From IMG/VR virus record IMGVR_UViG_3300033142_000168, positions 1-21,973 of that record: a DNA stretch of 21,973 nucleotides. One strand, 5' to 3'. Position numbers and translations under genes: made by a program. The stretch comes from a virus. Shown here piece after piece: positions 10,253-21,941 of the stretch. The notes under the pieces are model-generated. The model had not been told where the DNA came from and ran no database searches. It saw only the letters and a program-made list of their open reading frames with translations. Within the stretch, counting starts at the first letter, position 1; the number at the start of each line of letters is the position of its first letter.

Positions 10253-11710
10253 TTACACTCCTTTGAATAATACAAAGTTATTAGCAGCCTGAGTTACTAA
10301 ACATCTTTCAGATAAGAAGTTTACAGTCATAGCATCTAAATCGCTAGTGAAAGCTCCACCAACAGATCCAGTTAACCAAGACTTCATACGTCTATCATCA
10401 GCTTGTGACGCTCTATATCTTACGTGTAAGAAAGGACGTCTAATGTTAGTACCTAAAATCTGATCGTAAACTGTACTTGTTCCAGCAGGAACTAATACAC
10501 CTTCAATAGAAGCAGGTCCACTCATAGCACCACGAGTTGAAGCATCGTTTAAGTATTTCCAGTCAGTTTTGTAGAAGTCATAAGAACCTCTTCTGAATCC
10601 AGAGAAACCTAAATTTAATGCCATCTCCTCAGAGTTTTCGAATAAACCGAAAGCAGTACCACCAGCATTTCCATAAGATATAGAAGCTAGCATGTCATCA
10701 AAATCAAGATTAGTATTTCTGTTTAAGAATAACATGTTTTCTTCAATTGCTCCTTGAGTATCTAAGTTTCTAAGAATATCATCAAAGTCACTAATACCTG
10801 TTCCAGCAGAGAATCCAACTTGTACATTACCTCTATCTTCAATAGCAGCAAATAAACCTTCAGTACCTGTTACGTTTGCAATAGCAGAACCAGCACCAAC
10901 TTGCTCACCTTCTACAACAGACATTTCTAGGTAGTCTTCAAATCTAAGTCTTGTTTCAGACTCAGCTTTTAAATACCATAAATATCCAGAAGTACCATCT
11001 TCAGTAGCAACTTCTACCCAACCGATCTGAGCAGTGTCAGAACCATTGATTGAATATTGGCTTCTAATAATGATTGGCTTGTTAGAAAACTGAGTAAAGT
11101 CAGGAGTTACTGTAGCGATTGGATAATCATTACCAGCAACAGCTACACCAGCAGCAGAAGGAGCGATTGTAGTGTTTGTTCCTTTTGGATATTCAGAACC
11201 GTAAACAAATATCTTTACGTTACCTACAAGACCTTCAGTAGCTAAACTAGCAGAACCGTAAGGTAATACATTAAGTACACCAGTACCACCCCCAGCAGCT
11301 GTTCTTAAATCAGAATCAACAACTAAACATTTTGACTCACCACCAAAATCATCCATTACGACAATAGTTTGTTGTGGTGAAACAACGTTGTTAATATCTG
11401 CAGCAACTGGAATAGTAATTGTATTCGCAGCACCACCGTTAGCACAGTTATCATATGCAATATGTAATCTATTTTGTTCAGACCAGATTACTTGGTCAGA
11501 CGTCATTGGTAATTCAGCACCAACCATTCTTAAGAATCCAGATAAAGTTCTATTACCATATCTTTCAACTTCCTGCTCATAAAGCTCAGGTAAGTATTGT
11601 TGTGCGAAATTTCCACCAGCAGCGCCGTCAAAAGTCAAATAGTTACTCGCAAGAGTTTGTTGTACCTGCGATGGAACTATTGTACCAAATTGTGGATTTA
11701 AAATTCCCAT
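10253..11710 (-). CDS. Major capsid protein (HK97-like fold expected)
   Basis: 485 residues, close to the length usual for crAss-like capsid proteins. Recognisable blocks are NPQFGTIVPSQVQQTLASNY, GGNFAQQYLPELYEQEVERY, GNRTLSGFLRMVGAELPMTS and DQVIWSEQNRLHIAYDNC near the N-terminus (a likely N-arm and long helix), ETRLRFEDYLEMSVVEGEQV in the middle, and PFLHVRYRASQADDRRMKSW followed by SDLDAMTVNFLSERCLVTQA at the end. It lies directly after the scaffold gene (16 bases) and before a stem-loop, the usual place. Codon use is visibly different from neighbours, with more C-ending codons for Asn, Tyr and Phe and somewhat higher GC, as expected for the most abundant virion protein. The start MGILNPQFG is the only sensible one. 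No separate protease gene is seen beside it. Confidence 0.85.
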   Translation of the reverse strand: MGILNPQFGTIVPSQVQQTLASNYLTFDGAAGGNFAQQYLPELYEQEVERYGNRTLSGFLRMVGAELPMTSDQVIWSEQNRLHIAYDNCANGGAANTITIPVAADINNVVSPQQTIVVMDDFGGESKCLVVDSDLRTAAGGGTGVLNVLPYGSASLATEGLVGNVKIFVYGSEYPKGTNTTIAPSAAGVAVAGNDYPIATVTPDFTQFSNKPIIIRSQYSINGSDTAQIGWVEVATEDGTSGYLWYLKAESETRLRFEDYLEMSVVEGEQVGAGSAIANVTGTEGLFAAIEDRGNVQVGFSAGTGISDFDDILRNLDTQGAIEENMLFLNRNTNLDFDDMLASISYGNAGGTAFGLFENSEEMALNLGFSGFRRGSYDFYKTDWKYLNDASTRGAMSGPASIEGVLVPAGTSTVYDQILGTNIRRPFLHVRYRASQADDRRMKSWLTGSVGGAFTSDLDAMTVNFLSERCLVTQAANNFVLFKGV

Positions 11711-17894: not shown

Positions 17895-18444
17895 GTTCTA
17901 ATAAAATATCATTTGATTTCATACAATACAAACGCTCACCGTCTATATTAAACTCCCATTCTGACCCAGCTTTATAAGTAACTATGTGTCCTGGAGTTAT
18001 TCTTAGCTCTTCTAAGAAGCTATTACCTATTTTTAGTATACCAATATTGTTTAATTCTTTTTTGTTTAATAGAATATCTTTATTTTTAATAGGTATTATA
18101 AAGCACCTATCGTTTAAAGAGTTCCAATATTTATTTCTTTTATACAAATAAACCTGGTCTACACTAGCAAAATATAAATCATCTTTAAAATAAGATCTAC
18201 TATTTGTCTGCTTACCTTGCATGTTATAAAATCTTCTAAAAATGTTTTGATGTATTACAACTATATCACCCTGTTTAACAGGCGTTGCAATAGCGAGAGG
18301 TGTTGATACTACTTCAGCAAATCTATTTACAAATTTCCAACCTTCAACTTTAGTATTTAAAACTAATTCCTTATCACCTATTTTTTTTGTATTAGAATAT
18401 CTTTCACCTATCGGCTTAACGATAAAATCATACACACTTCTCAT
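17839..18444 (-). CDS. GroES-like protein with two lobes
   Basis: 201 residues. The N-terminal lobe starts with FIVKPIGERY (7-16), close to the GroES opening K-P-L-G-D-R-V, followed by a VVSTP strand and VKQGDIVVIHQNIF (56-69), where GroES has its V-x-x-G-D-x-V hairpin. The C-terminal lobe from about 113 repeats the scheme: FIIPIKNKD, then a GILKIGN strand, ITPGHIVTYKAGSEWEFNID (149-168) and GERLYCMKSNDILLEHGY (169-186), like the GroES ending of K-x-D-G-E-E-Y-L-V-L-R-E-x-D-I-L. This suggests a tandem duplication of the fold. The mobile loop that contacts GroEL is not clearly recognisable. It may assist capsid folding with host GroEL or be a structural relative with a new job. It starts on a TAATG junction and its last 56 bases overlap the small terminase gene; the tail EYNPSWAKSS is a motif I remember in relatives, so the overlap seems real. 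Confidence 0.55.
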   Translation of the reverse strand: MRSVYDFIVKPIGERYSNTKKIGDKELVLNTKVEGWKFVNRFAEVVSTPLAIATPVKQGDIVVIHQNIFRRFYNMQGKQTNSRSYFKDDLYFASVDQVYLYKRNKYWNSLNDRCFIIPIKNKDILLNKKELNNIGILKIGNSFLEELRITPGHIVTYKAGSEWEFNIDGERLYCMKSNDILLEHGYKEDQKEYNPSWAKSS

Positions 18445-18671
18445 TAGTACTTAAGATCATACTCGATTGATATAGCCATGTTAGAATTAAACTTCTTCCA
18501 AGGTAATACCTCATCGTTCTTTTTTATATAAATGTTATATGATAAATCTTTATCTTCTAGCAGTATGTGAGATATAGTGTGCCCGCCATATACTTCTTGA
18601 CCAACAGAATAGTGCATGGCATCATTTTTATAATCAGATCCAATACTGATTTTTCTTATAATGTTGTCCAT
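18444..18671 (-). CDS. Small conserved phage protein of unknown function
   Basis: 75 residues, mostly beta (IRKISIGSDYKNDAMHYSVG, GGHTISHILLEDKDLSYNIY, IKKNDEVLPWKKFNSNMAIS, IEYDLKY). The opening IIRKISIGSDYKNDAMHYSV and the closing IEYDL resemble a small protein I recall next to GroES-like and TerS genes in marine phages. There is no signal peptide, membrane segment, zinc site or catalytic motif. It starts 1 base after the coiled-coil gene ends and its stop overlaps the next start (TAATG), so it is expressed with the packaging genes. The function is not known to me. Confidence 0.6.
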   Translation of the reverse strand: MDNIIRKISIGSDYKNDAMHYSVGQEVYGGHTISHILLEDKDLSYNIYIKKNDEVLPWKKFNSNMAISIEYDLKY

Positions 18672-18918: not shown

Positions 18919-18934
18919 TTAATTTAATTTAATT
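18916..18934 (-). promoter_or_regulatory. TTAAA tandem-repeat leader at the coiled-coil gene start
   Basis: Three tandem copies of the TTAAA-type pentamer run from the stop codon of the holin-like gene straight into ATG 18918. The holin-like gene's last four codons are Asn (AAC/AAT) and its stop lies in this low-complexity tract. It mirrors the leader at 1061 and probably serves as a Shine-Dalgarno-free initiation region; that role is inferred. Confidence 0.4.
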
Positions 18935-19291
18935 ATTATTGTTGTACGCGCCATACACCGTGATTAATAAAGACTGAAAAATCGGTATATATTCTTCAGC
19001 AACTTGAAAACCTCCAATATTACCATCAAAAAAAGATAGAGCTGTAAATATTATAGTTAAATATATTAATACTAAAGGCCTTATGTTTTTAGATAAGAAC
19101 GAATCAGATTGCATATCCACTTTCCATCTTTCAGTAATCTGCGTCTGTGCATCCTGATCCGCTTTCTCTAATAATTCTTGTACCTTTTGTTTTGCAGCTA
19201 ATCTCTCTTCGTCTGTAGTTGTAAGCTTATCGATTACATCACCTACGTCTTTAATTAAACCACCAGTTAAAAGACTTAAGATTTTTTTCAT
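18929..19291 (-). CDS. Holin-like membrane protein (three-segment holin type)
   Basis: 120 residues. An N-terminal amphipathic helix (LSLLTGGLIKDVGDVIDKLT, 5-24) is followed by a charged helix (EERLAAKQKVQELLEKADQD) and the pattern ITERWKVDMQSDSFLSKNIR (52-71), then two membrane segments at about 72-89 (PLVLIYLTIIFTALSFFD) and 101-116 (YIPIFQSLLITVYGAY). The W-x-x-D-x-x-S-D-S-x-L-S-K-N-I-R-P-L block before the first segment is the hallmark I associate with the three-transmembrane GTA/phage holin family. Its expected job is timed pore formation in the inner membrane at lysis. It starts on a TAATG overlap with the 416-residue gene. The nearby small HExxH gene might be part of the lysis unit, but no classical endolysin is present in this window. 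Confidence 0.75.
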   Translation of the reverse strand: MKKILSLLTGGLIKDVGDVIDKLTTTDEERLAAKQKVQELLEKADQDAQTQITERWKVDMQSDSFLSKNIRPLVLIYLTIIFTALSFFDGNIGGFQVAEEYIPIFQSLLITVYGAYNNNN

Positions 19292-20541
19292 TATTTTTTA
19301 TTACCTTGTTTCATTCCAAACTTCATTGGACCTTGAGGCATTTTAGGTGAACCACCAGATAAATATTCTTGAGGGGTGTTGAATCCTCCATAACTACCAA
19401 CAGTACCAGGATCAGTATTAACACCAGTAACAATAGCTGTACCTTTACGGTTTTTACCAATCTTAATTTCCTTCCCTACATTAGAAGGCTTATATTGCCC
19501 ACCAAATGATGAATAACCATAACCAATATTAATTTGATCACCTGTTTTAGCTTTACTCCCTCTACCACTAGTCACATTTGCTGTTCCTGTTCCTACATTA
19601 TCACTAAACATTTCATTAGCTTCATCGTGAGTAAATCTAAATTCTCCTGCTTTTTCTTTAAAGCTACTATCTTTATTTGAATCTCGACTAACTAAAGTTC
19701 TTCTACCTATTTTATTACCATGTTTTATAGCGTGTAGAAGAGTTTGTTCATTGATAGGTCTATCTTTTAAATACTGATCAGCTACATTAGCACTATCTCT
19801 TCTAGCTAAATTTACTCTTTCTGCTTGACCAGCCTCATATCTATTTCTTCTATTTTCTTCTCGTTCCATACCAGCATCTAATAATTCCTGAGCACCTTGG
19901 TTTTTAGAAGTTTTCTTTTGTTTTTTAACCTCTGTTTTAACACTTGGCTTAGTTGTAGAATTAGAAGAAGTACTTCCACCTGAACTAGATGTACCAGCTA
20001 TTTTATCATATGCACCAATGTTTGATTGAGAAATATGACCAGCTTCTGCCATTTCAGTTCCAGTTCTACCAGAAAACTTTTCATTTTTAGATAAGCTAGT
20101 CATGTAATCTGAATCAGATTGTTTTGTTTTTGTTCCTGACTTAGCTTTTTCTAATTTAGTTTTTGATTCTGAACCACCACCACTTGAAGAAGTATCTGTG
20201 GAACTACTAGTGCCTGGCACTACTACTTGACTTGTATTTTGTTGTGTATACGATGGTCTATCACTACCTACTTCGTGACCTTTTGTTGGGTCATTAGGAT
20301 CTAAGTGTCTTCCCGGTGCATGCATACCTTTAGAAGCTCCTTCATATTTAGGTGCTCCATTCATGTACATACCAGCACCATCGTAATACTTAGCAGCTGC
20401 ATCACCATGCATCATTTTAGCTGCTGTTAAGTCTCCTTTTTTTCCTGGTGCTATTCTTCCAGCACCTAACTTTTGGATGTATCCTAGCTTTTCCGCAGGA
20501 ACGTCATATTTAAAACCATCCATGTAACTATCTTTACCCAT
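19291..20541 (-). CDS. Low-complexity Ser/Gly/Lys-rich protein of unknown function
   Basis: 416 residues. The N-terminus has KYDVPAEKLGYIQKLGAGRI and a Gly/Met/Tyr/Lys stretch (AAKYYDGAGMYMNGAPKYEG) typical of poorly understood virion-associated proteins in this phage group. Residues about 95-210 are Ser/Thr/Gly repeats (SSSTDTSSSGGGSESKTK; SSGGSTSSNSTTK), probably disordered. A more ordered part (about 215-340) includes an Arg-rich helix (EREENRRNRYEAGQAERVNL) and EFRFTHDEANEMFSDN. The end is basic and Gly/Met-rich (MPQGPMKFGMKQGNKK). No catalytic motif, signal peptide or membrane span is seen. It lies between a small HExxH gene and a holin-like gene; its stop overlaps the holin start. A virion-internal or DNA-associated role is a guess. 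Confidence 0.55.
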   Translation of the reverse strand: MGKDSYMDGFKYDVPAEKLGYIQKLGAGRIAPGKKGDLTAAKMMHGDAAAKYYDGAGMYMNGAPKYEGASKGMHAPGRHLDPNDPTKGHEVGSDRPSYTQQNTSQVVVPGTSSSTDTSSSGGGSESKTKLEKAKSGTKTKQSDSDYMTSLSKNEKFSGRTGTEMAEAGHISQSNIGAYDKIAGTSSSGGSTSSNSTTKPSVKTEVKKQKKTSKNQGAQELLDAGMEREENRRNRYEAGQAERVNLARRDSANVADQYLKDRPINEQTLLHAIKHGNKIGRRTLVSRDSNKDSSFKEKAGEFRFTHDEANEMFSDNVGTGTANVTSGRGSKAKTGDQINIGYGYSSFGGQYKPSNVGKEIKIGKNRKGTAIVTGVNTDPGTVGSYGGFNTPQEYLSGGSPKMPQGPMKFGMKQGNKK

Positions 20542-20563: not shown

Positions 20564-20896
20564 TTATTTTTTTGTTTTGATTTCGTTTGCATAAGCTGGA
20601 GGCTCCCACGGTCCAGTACCTTTTGCAAAATGTTCTTTTGAATATTTTTTATCCTTATAATAAATCCAATTATCGTCCCAGTCAAAACCCTCGTGTTTCA
20701 TTTGATCCACGTGTGTTTGCTCGTGGGAATGAGTTTCAGTTTTAAGTGATGGAGACAAATCTTCTTCCATTATAATTACACCATTTTTTAAAGTTCTACC
20801 TACAGCAGGATCTGCTGACATATCTCTTTCGTAAACTGGCGTAACACTAGTTGGATAAAAAGGTTTAATTTTAAAACTACCTTTTAATGTGATCAT
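20564..20896 (-). CDS. Small HExxH putative metallopeptidase-like protein
   Basis: 110 residues from the start I prefer at 20896 (MITLKGSFKIKPFYPTS). The motif HSHEQTHVDQMKHEG contains HEQTH (His58, Glu59, His62), the zinc-binding and catalytic core of minimal gluzincin-type metallopeptidases, and the later PWEPPAYANEI offers Glu98 or Glu104 as a third ligand. The reading frame is open further upstream to a methionine at 20974, but those 26 residues lie over the conserved Cys-containing protein in another frame and look like a shadow. The chosen start overlaps the end of that gene by 20 bases. With a holin-like gene two genes downstream, a cell-wall or prohead-protein cutting role is possible, but the substrate cannot be told; it may also have lost catalysis. 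Confidence 0.6.
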   Translation of the reverse strand: MITLKGSFKIKPFYPTSVTPVYERDMSADPAVGRTLKNGVIIMEEDLSPSLKTETHSHEQTHVDQMKHEGFDWDDNWIYYKDKKYSKEHFAKGTGPWEPPAYANEIKTKK

Positions 20897-21047
20897 TTCT
20901 ATATGGAAATTTTTTATTAAACCACTCTTGTCTGTTGTTGCAACCGCAAGGGATATTAAGCCCGTCAGAGACAATATCTACAACGTGCTTAATACCTGTT
21001 TTTTTTGTGAAATTAGCTATGCTATCTCCTAATCCTTTTGGTTTCAT
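20877..21047 (-). CDS. Small CxC protein of unknown function
   Basis: 56 residues, starting at ATG 21047 and ending at TAG 20877-20879. Sequence features: KPKGLGDSIANFTKKTGIKH (2-21), VVDIVSDGLNIPCGCNNRQE (22-41) and WFNKKFPYRNDHIKR. The N-terminal G-L-G-D-x-I, the single CGC motif (34-36) and the F-P-Y-R near the end match a small family I remember from marine tailed phages, where C-G-C-x-x-R-x-x-x-x-N-x-x-F-P-Y is constant. Two cysteines could contribute to a metal site in an oligomer. It is easy to miss at this length. The 3' end overlaps the HExxH gene start, and it starts 10 bases after the 113-residue gene. The function is unknown. Confidence 0.7.
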   Translation of the reverse strand: MKPKGLGDSIANFTKKTGIKHVVDIVSDGLNIPCGCNNRQEWFNKKFPYRNDHIKR

Positions 21048-21443: not shown

Positions 21444-21941
21444 CTACAGTTTTCTCTGTTTATTTTGGACTCGAGGTTTTGGTTTATATTTATTTAAAAG
21501 ATCTTCTTTTTGTTTTTCCTCTTTTTTCTTTAAATATTCTTCTAAATCTCGCGGGGTAGCTTGTTGAGCTCCTCCGCTTTCACCTTTTCCGCCTTTACCT
21601 TTGTTCGGATCTGGTTTTGCTGGTCCTTGATGAGCTTTTCCTTCAGCGTGTAAAACTTTATGATAACCTCCTTTAAAATCACCAGGTCCATGATGCTTTT
21701 CATCATATTTAAGATCTCCAGCTAATTTAGAAATATGCTTTTCATCAGCTGTCATTTTCTCGTCGCTATGTCCGTGATGAGCGTCATATAATACATCTCT
21801 TTTAAGATAGTCCATATGTGCTTCATCATCTCTTTTAGTTGCTTCATAATTACCCGCAGTTACTCTTGTGTGTGCGTGATTATATGAGTGTCTTGAATTA
21901 CCGGAATATTTCCCAGCATGTCCTTGTTCGTTTACTGCCAT
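21444..21941 (-). CDS. Histidine- and lysine-rich protein of unknown function
   Basis: 165 residues. The first ~105 residues hold 14 histidines (KYSGNSRHSYNHAHTRVTAG, VLYDAHHGHSDEKMTADEKH, KLAGDLKYDEKHHGPGDFKG), then a Gly/Lys/Pro linker (PNKGKGGKGESGG) and a basic coiled-coil-like tail (LEEYLKKKEEKQKEDLLNKY, KPKPRVQNKQRKL). There is no membrane segment or known motif. The pattern could bind metal or nucleic acid, but neither is shown. It is the second gene from the right edge and is expressed in the same direction as the rest. It starts at 21941 after an A/T-only leader. Confidence 0.55.
   Translation of the reverse strand: MAVNEQGHAGKYSGNSRHSYNHAHTRVTAGNYEATKRDDEAHMDYLKRDVLYDAHHGHSDEKMTADEKHISKLAGDLKYDEKHHGPGDFKGGYHKVLHAEGKAHQGPAKPDPNKGKGGKGESGGAQQATPRDLEEYLKKKEEKQKEDLLNKYKPKPRVQNKQRKL

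What the first reader, a model, noticed from the sequence alone, without database searches (positions are those of the whole stretch)
20564..20896. Tiny HExxH protein two genes before a holin-like gene
The 110-residue protein has HEQTH plus a possible downstream Glu ligand, and its start overlaps the CxC gene. It could be a minimal metallopeptidase acting on the cell wall or on virion proteins; no classical endolysin is seen in this window.
Basis: partly seen in the sequence, partly recalled or inferred. Interest (0 to 1): 0.5.

Follow-up and report, generated by a model that had tools for sequence, protein, structure and literature searches.

The report
Small phage zinc-protease-like late protein
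A 110-residue protein of an uncultured phage related to flavobacterial phages looks like a very small zinc protease, but relatives that carry it usually carry an ordinary cell-wall-cutting enzyme as well, so it is probably a helper enzyme and not the missing lysin.

Summary
The minus-strand ORF 20896-20564 encodes 110 residues with H58-E59-x-x-H62, overlaps the CxC gene by 20 bases and lies two genes before a holin-like gene. The motif alone is weak evidence (68 of 3,395 non-family ORFs carry HExxH). The family evidence is strong. At least 557 IMG/VR stretches encode relatives. Of 170 family ORFs collected, 168 keep HExxH plus a downstream ExxA. The only invariant residues across the widest alignment are H, E, H, E (E98 here) and A. 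AlphaFold models of two members 34% identical are confident, and their best PDB matches are zincin-type metallopeptidases: IrrE/PprI, ArdC, minigluzincins.

The endolysin reading is not supported. Of 23 relative contigs with the gene, 17 also carry Peptidase_M15_3 or Amidase_2. The other six are fragments; the window's own group ends inside the giant virion gene that precedes M15 in relatives.

Best reading: a stand-alone mini-zincin, a late accessory protease of unknown substrate. It is a new member of a known kind.

The parts
20564..20896 (-). gene of the 110-residue zincin-like protein (ATG start, stop included)
   Evidence: family alignment; dN/dS 0.05-0.29
20711..20725 (-). HEQTH (residues 58-62): predicted zinc ligands H58 and H62, catalytic base E59, in a predicted helix 49-68
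   Evidence: invariant (65 rows) and (45 rows); DSSP of the model
20603..20605 (-). codon of E98, predicted third zinc ligand (WExxAY), first residue of predicted helix 98-103
   Evidence: invariant; secondary structure. Ligand geometry not measured (no coordinates returned)
20877..21047 (-). 56-residue CGC protein upstream, overlapping by 20 bases; a frequent neighbour but not a dedicated partner
   Evidence: found in 57 of 131 family loci, directly upstream in 52; also in MW202828, which lacks the zincin
19291..20541 (-). 416-residue low-complexity late protein between the zincin and the holin (variable gene)
   Evidence: no Pfam or PHROG hit
18929..19291 (-). holin-like protein
   Evidence: PHROG 3427 E 7.7e-22; Pfam GTA_holin_3TM just under its cut-off

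Best explanation
(1) The protein is a stand-alone minimal zincin-fold metallopeptidase of about 100 residues. H58, H62 and E98 would bind one zinc ion, and E59 would activate water for peptide cleavage. (2) It is not the phage's endolysin. It is an accessory enzyme carried at a fixed place in the late operon, between the appendage genes and GroES-terminase, close to the holin. (3) My committed guess for the role is a late endopeptidase that cuts protein in the host envelope or matrix and helps lysis and release, working beside a separate M15 or amidase lysin. Steps: open frame, conservation and genomic position are shown; fold is predicted; zinc binding, catalysis and substrate are inferred. 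The stated confidence covers (1) and (2) together; I give (3) about 0.3.
For: H, E, H, the distal E and A are the only invariant residues across 45 proteins that include four large-phage relatives. 168 of 170 family ORFs keep both halves of the site, the two misses being halves of one split gene. Models of the window protein (pLDDT 88.7, pTM 0.77) and of a member 34% identical to it (pLDDT 86.9, pTM 0.80) share three strands, then the HExxH helix, then a hairpin, then a helix at or beside the distal Glu. That is the architecture described for phage zincin-like peptidases (passages of PMC5512222). The best PDB comparisons are IrrE/PprI (Z 6.5, rmsd 3.8, 85 aligned; Z 5.4, rmsd 3.6, 86 aligned), ArdC (Z 4.9 and 5.0) and minigluzincins. 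Best member E-values are 2e-12 to PHROG 16532, 1.4e-10 to PHROG 10499 and 6.6e-5 to PHROG 87 'metallo-protease'. Separate lysins occur in 17 of 23 contigs. The holin lies within 3 kb downstream in 98 of 115 loci, and in 10 of 56 loci both a lysin upstream and the holin downstream lie within 3 kb.
Against: No Pfam or NCBIfam model passes its cut-off for any member scanned. Foldseek found no PDB match at E 0.001 or better, and Z values of 5-6.5 are in the range the tool calls middling. Zinc geometry was not measured. The holin link is not specific: terminase lies within 8 kb downstream in 42 of 42 testable loci, so fixed order in one phage lineage explains it equally well. The four large-phage relatives have no holin annotated nearby; one lies four genes from a GH108 gene. 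In 17 of 115 loci no holin was found within 3 kb downstream. Nothing shows secretion, substrate or expression time.
Confidence: 0.72

Rival explanations
1. A virion-maturation protease: made late, it processes a head, tail or giant internal virion protein during assembly.
For: The gene lies among late and appendage-type genes upstream of GroES, terminase and portal. A conserved zincin-like peptidase of one jumbo-phage group has been proposed for such cleavages (passages of PMC7824862). Relatives encode very large virion-type proteins (for example 2,259 and 2,720 residues).
Against: Seven reference phages with related terminases lack the gene (MW202828 and elemoA; phi13:2, phi38:1, Gundel_1, Calle_2 and phi46:3), so it is dispensable for this assembly plan. 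No proteomic data were available.
Confidence: 0.25
2. A host-directed or injected effector protease, like IrrE/ArdC-type zincins of phage polyvalent proteins, cutting a host defence or regulatory protein.
For: The nearest folds are IrrE/PprI and ArdC. Phage zincins have been proposed as host-targeting proteases (PMC5512222, PMC7824862 passages).
Against: The position is in the late region. The protein is small and stand-alone, with no DNA-binding or ArdC-N part. The sequence is strongly conserved rather than variable (dN/dS 0.05-0.29).
Confidence: 0.15
3. The endolysin of the window's own phage group: a mini-zincin that cuts peptidoglycan.
For: No Amidase_2, M15_3, M15_4, GH108, Amidase_3 or lysozyme in the window or in the two longest contigs of its group, G004 and G005. 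In reference phages the stretch upstream of GroES-terminase holds the endolysin.
Against: 17 of 23 contigs with the gene carry an M15_3 or Amidase_2. In relatives M15 can lie directly after the giant virion gene, or one small gene after it, and G004, G005 and the window's twin all end inside that gene.
Confidence: 0.07
4. A catalytically dead zincin-fold structural or binding protein.
For: No activity is known; distant homology only.
Against: The catalytic E59 and all three predicted ligands are among the only residues kept throughout, which is the opposite of what a dead enzyme usually shows.
Confidence: 0.06

Closest known systems
PHROG 16532 and PHROG 10499 (phage families of unknown function)
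   Same: Same profile region with HExxH; 61 of 65 family members match each at E up to 1, best 2e-12 and 1.4e-10
   Different: The window protein itself matches only at E 0.11 and 0.005; the profiles are longer (138 and 149 positions)
IrrE/PprI (Peptidase_M78) and ArdC C-terminal zincin
   Same: Best structural comparisons: Z 6.5 and 5.4 (IrrE), 4.9 and 5.0 (ArdC)
   Different: Pfam M78 cut-off not met (best member 14.1 of 22 bits); no extra domains here; 12-16% identity
Minigluzincins (abylysin, jannalysin/selecase) and the Wss1/SprT group
   Same: About 100-residue stand-alone zincins; Z 2.8-4.4 against the window model. Wss1 and Spartan are described as minigluzincins (passages of PMC4559962)
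   Different: No sequence match found; lower Z than IrrE
Zincin-like peptidase domains of phage polyvalent proteins
   Same: Three strands plus two helices carrying HExxH and Glu (passages of PMC5512222)
   Different: Those are parts of large multidomain proteins; this one stands alone near holin and packaging genes
Putative zinc metallopeptidase of Maribacter phage Molly (PMC8776804, passages)
   Same: Short phage zinc peptidase in a flavobacterial phage, proposed to act on extracellular matrix proteins or help release
   Different: 199 residues with a lipoprotein domain; its sequence was not compared here

Membership tests
Zincin/gluzincin metallopeptidases | HExxH on a helix | tested here: met
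   Residues 58-62 in predicted helix 49-68; kept in 168 of 170 ORFs
Zincin/gluzincin metallopeptidases | Conserved downstream Glu as third ligand | tested here: met
   E98 invariant in 65 of 65 rows and in the 45-row alignment; conservation only, binding not shown
Zincin/gluzincin metallopeptidases | Zincin core fold | tested here: inconclusive
   Predicted models match zincins best, but Z is below 8 and Foldseek E is above 0.001
Zincin/gluzincin metallopeptidases | Bound zinc and peptidase activity | not testable with these tools
   No coordinates returned; no bench data
Peptidase_M78 (IrrE/ImmA) | Pfam PF06114 gathering score | tested here: not met
   Absent for the window protein at E 10; best family member scanned 14.1 of 22 bits
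DUF6782 putative metallopeptidase (PF20573) | Pfam gathering score | tested here: not met
   Window protein 12.7 of 27 bits; best member 20.1
PhageMetallopep (PF18894) | Pfam gathering score | tested here: not met
   One member of ten proteins at 13.3 of 23.7 bits
Minigluzincins | About 100-residue soluble zincin scaffold | tested here: inconclusive
   Length fits (110 residues); Z 2.8-4.4, 2.3-3.8 for the second model
Phage endolysin | The phage's peptidoglycan hydrolase, with no other lysin in the genome | tested here: not met
   17 of 23 relative contigs also carry M15_3 or Amidase_2; not decided for the window's own genome, which is incomplete
Phage endolysin | Cuts peptidoglycan | not testable with these tools
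   Needs purified protein

The most novel reading that the evidence does not exclude
A lysis-linked zinc protease that does for these phages of Gram-negative Bacteroidota what spanins do elsewhere: released by the holin beside a separate lysin, it cuts proteins that tie down or cover the outer membrane, so that the cell bursts.
Probability: 0.1. Interest if true: 0.65.

Novelty: new member of a known kind. Interest (0 to 1): 0.3.

Why it matters
It gives a function class to a large unnamed phage protein family: at least 557 IMG/VR stretches matched, no Pfam or NCBIfam model passed its cut-off for the members scanned, and the nearest PHROGs are 'unknown function'. It also warns against reading a nearby holin and a missing lysin as proof of a new endolysin when the contig is a fragment. 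If the family proved to be a lysis or envelope protease it would be unusual, because phage lysis is normally described in terms of holins, peptidoglycan hydrolases and spanins (general knowledge, not from a call).

Tried and rejected
Sole endolysin: rejected as the main reading because separate lysins occur in 17 of 23 contigs. The CGC gene as a dedicated partner or cysteine-type inhibitor of the protease: weakened, because it occurs in MW202828 without the zincin and in only 28 of 65 loci with 3 kb upstream. MAFFT first aligned a distant group's distal Glu to E105; the larger set and the wider alignments place it at E98. phmmer and profile searches of PDB sequences gave only chance-level hits. 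tblastn of the window protein in the phage collection gave nothing useful and that of the most distant group nothing; a mid-family member found the large-phage relatives. Contig G027 lacks the zincin but starts just downstream of its slot, so it tests nothing. A first count of holins demanded no overlap and gave 86 of 115; allowing small overlaps gave 98 of 115, and I use the latter. Rows dropped before the neighbour counts: identical genes (170 ORFs to 136 distinct), then two L072 halves and three large-phage genes, leaving 131. A split by frameshift was assumed for L072 and not checked against reads. No search for spanins was made. Of the families that did not appear in the VIA list I conclude nothing. 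Paper searches; I found no paper on this family in those, which is no proof that none exists. For PMC6899460 I saw the search listing and start of abstract only; for PMC5512222, PMC7824862, PMC8776804, PMC4559962, PMC7077304 and PMC8235301 I saw passages.

Full report
What is there. The ORF on the minus strand at 20896-20564 encodes 110 residues, with HEQTH at 58-62. Its ATG lies inside the 56-residue CxC ORF. The longer TTG-started version of the same frame (136 residues) is not favoured, because the family's conserved part begins just after the ATG. Two genes downstream is a holin-like protein. The window is a 21,973-base virus record. Its terminase is 63% identical to that of MW202828, about 44% to Flavobacterium elemo phages, and 30-37% to the Cellulophaga and Tenacibaculum phages among the 25 records listed of 87.

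Is it more than chance? HExxH alone is not rare here: 68 of 3,395 ORFs outside the family contain it, and 47 of those are one 75-residue gene. The family evidence is different in kind. In the 170 family ORFs I collected, 168 keep HExxH and a downstream ExxA motif, and the two others are halves of one split gene. Nine close relatives give dN/dS of 0.05-0.29. In the 65-row alignment E98 and A101 are invariant with H58, E59 and H62. When four proteins from large phages are added, only H, E, H, E and A stay invariant (in one search, a 10-row alignment, one Gln as well).

Fold. The AlphaFold model of the window protein has mean pLDDT 88.7 and pTM 0.77. Three strands are followed by the HExxH helix 49-68, a hairpin, and a helix that starts at E98. 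An independent model of L016's protein, 34% identical, has pLDDT 86.9 and pTM 0.80 with the same order. Foldseek gives no PDB match at E 0.001 or better. The VIA second look is mostly zincins. For the window model: IrrE/PprI 5.0-6.5, a Mycobacterium regulator 4.5-5.1, ArdC 4.9, CapP 4.5, Wss1 4.3-4.4, selecase/abylysin/jannalysin 2.8-4.4, several listed toxin or effector peptidases 2.4-4.2, and two rows of other or unclear kinship at 3.2 and 2.5. For the second model, 12 rows: IrrE/PprI 4.3-5.4, ArdC 4.8-5.0, minigluzincins 2.3-3.8 and one fungal zinc peptidase at 2.5. That these entries are zincins rests on their titles and on my recollection of them. The Z values are middling and are support, not proof. 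The architecture agrees with the description of phage zincin-like peptidases in PMC5512222 (passages). In the viral structure library the best match is a 301-residue protein of an uncultured virus (E 1.5e-6, TM 0.74 on the query), which I could not follow up.

Families. No Pfam or NCBIfam cut-off is reached for the proteins scanned; most of the weak scores are with putative or IrrE/SprT-type metallopeptidases. PHROG 16532 and 10499 (unknown function) match 61 of 65 members each at E up to 1, best 2e-12 and 1.4e-10; PHROG 87 'metallo-protease' matches 43 with best 6.6e-5.

Neighbourhood. Among 131 nucleotide-distinct family genes (rows dropped are told under Tried and rejected), the holin lies within 3 kb downstream in 98 of the 115 with enough sequence, terminase within 8 kb in 42 of 42, the CGC gene within 3 kb upstream in 28 of 65, and a lysin (12 M15, 3 amidase) within 3 kb upstream in 15 of 65. 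The gene thus has a fixed seat in the late operon of one phage lineage. Because terminase is equally constant, the holin's nearness is not specific evidence for lysis. The four large-phage relatives sit in other contexts.

Is it the endolysin? I searched whole contigs. Of 23 relative contigs that hold the zincin (20, three more; the window itself not counted), 14 also hold Peptidase_M15_3 and 3 hold Amidase_2, 17 in all. The six others (G004, G005, G012, G013, G018, G019) gave no Amidase_2, M15_3, M15_4, GH108, Amidase_3 or lysozyme, and neither did the window; M23 gave only sub-threshold matches in the window and its twin. M15 has two seats in this lineage: shortly upstream of the zincin, or directly after (or one small gene after) the giant virion gene. 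The window's own group has no M15 at the first seat in G005, whose sequence reaches 10 kb upstream. At the second seat the sequence is missing: the twin contig L189 (508-residue protein 100% identical), G005 and G004 all end inside the giant gene; in L189 its frame is broken once and goes on to the contig end. So the missing endolysin is most simply a missing piece of sequence. Seven reference phages with related terminases lack the zincin, and in those whose region I read the lysin is annotated as an M15-type peptidase, a GH108 or an amidase, or simply as endolysin, so the zincin is an accessory gene.

How it probably works. By analogy with zincins, H58, H62 and E98 hold zinc, E59 activates water, and a peptide bond is cut. 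The substrate is unknown. I favour, at about 0.3, an envelope- or matrix-directed protease that helps release, because of its seat beside the holin and sometimes the lysin and its late position. Virion maturation (about 0.25) and a host-directed protease (about 0.15) are close rivals. A flavobacterial phage paper proposes a release or matrix role for another short phage zinc peptidase (PMC8776804, passages), which is a suggestion and not a demonstration.

Verdict. This is a widespread, unnamed member of a known kind.

Noticed in passing
window 18444-18671 (minus strand) and homologues: A conserved 75-residue gene carries GGHEISH in many relatives (47 with HExxH) but GGHTISH in the window; it shows that HExxH scans alone give false leads.
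   Followed up: partly
window 20877-21047 and relatives: A small CGC protein (about 50 residues, GLGDxIxxFTKxTGIK...CGC..R...N..FPY) is found in 83 loci and in MW202828; its function is unknown.
   Followed up: partly
contig of L050 (G008, 129,537 bases): Two copies each of the zincin (63.8 kb apart) and of M15 (62.3 kb apart) in one contig, as if two related genomes of about 63 kb were joined or concatenated.
   Followed up: no
L024, L016, L037 and others, upstream of the zincin: Phage-encoded GroEL-like and small GroES-like proteins by look, in addition to the 201-residue GroES-like protein next to terminase.
   Followed up: no
L094-L101: Relatives in MAG contigs labelled Aliivibrio, Euryarchaeota, Woesearchaeota, Bacteroidetes and others; probably virus contigs binned into MAGs, not checked.
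   Followed up: no
window 10859-11029 (minus strand): A sub-threshold Peptidase_M23 match (15.4 of 28.7 bits) inside the 485-residue ORF, probably chance.
   Followed up: no
window 21444-21941 (minus strand): A 165-residue His-rich, low-complexity late protein with relatives near the zincin in many loci; the cluster is loose because of low complexity.
   Followed up: no
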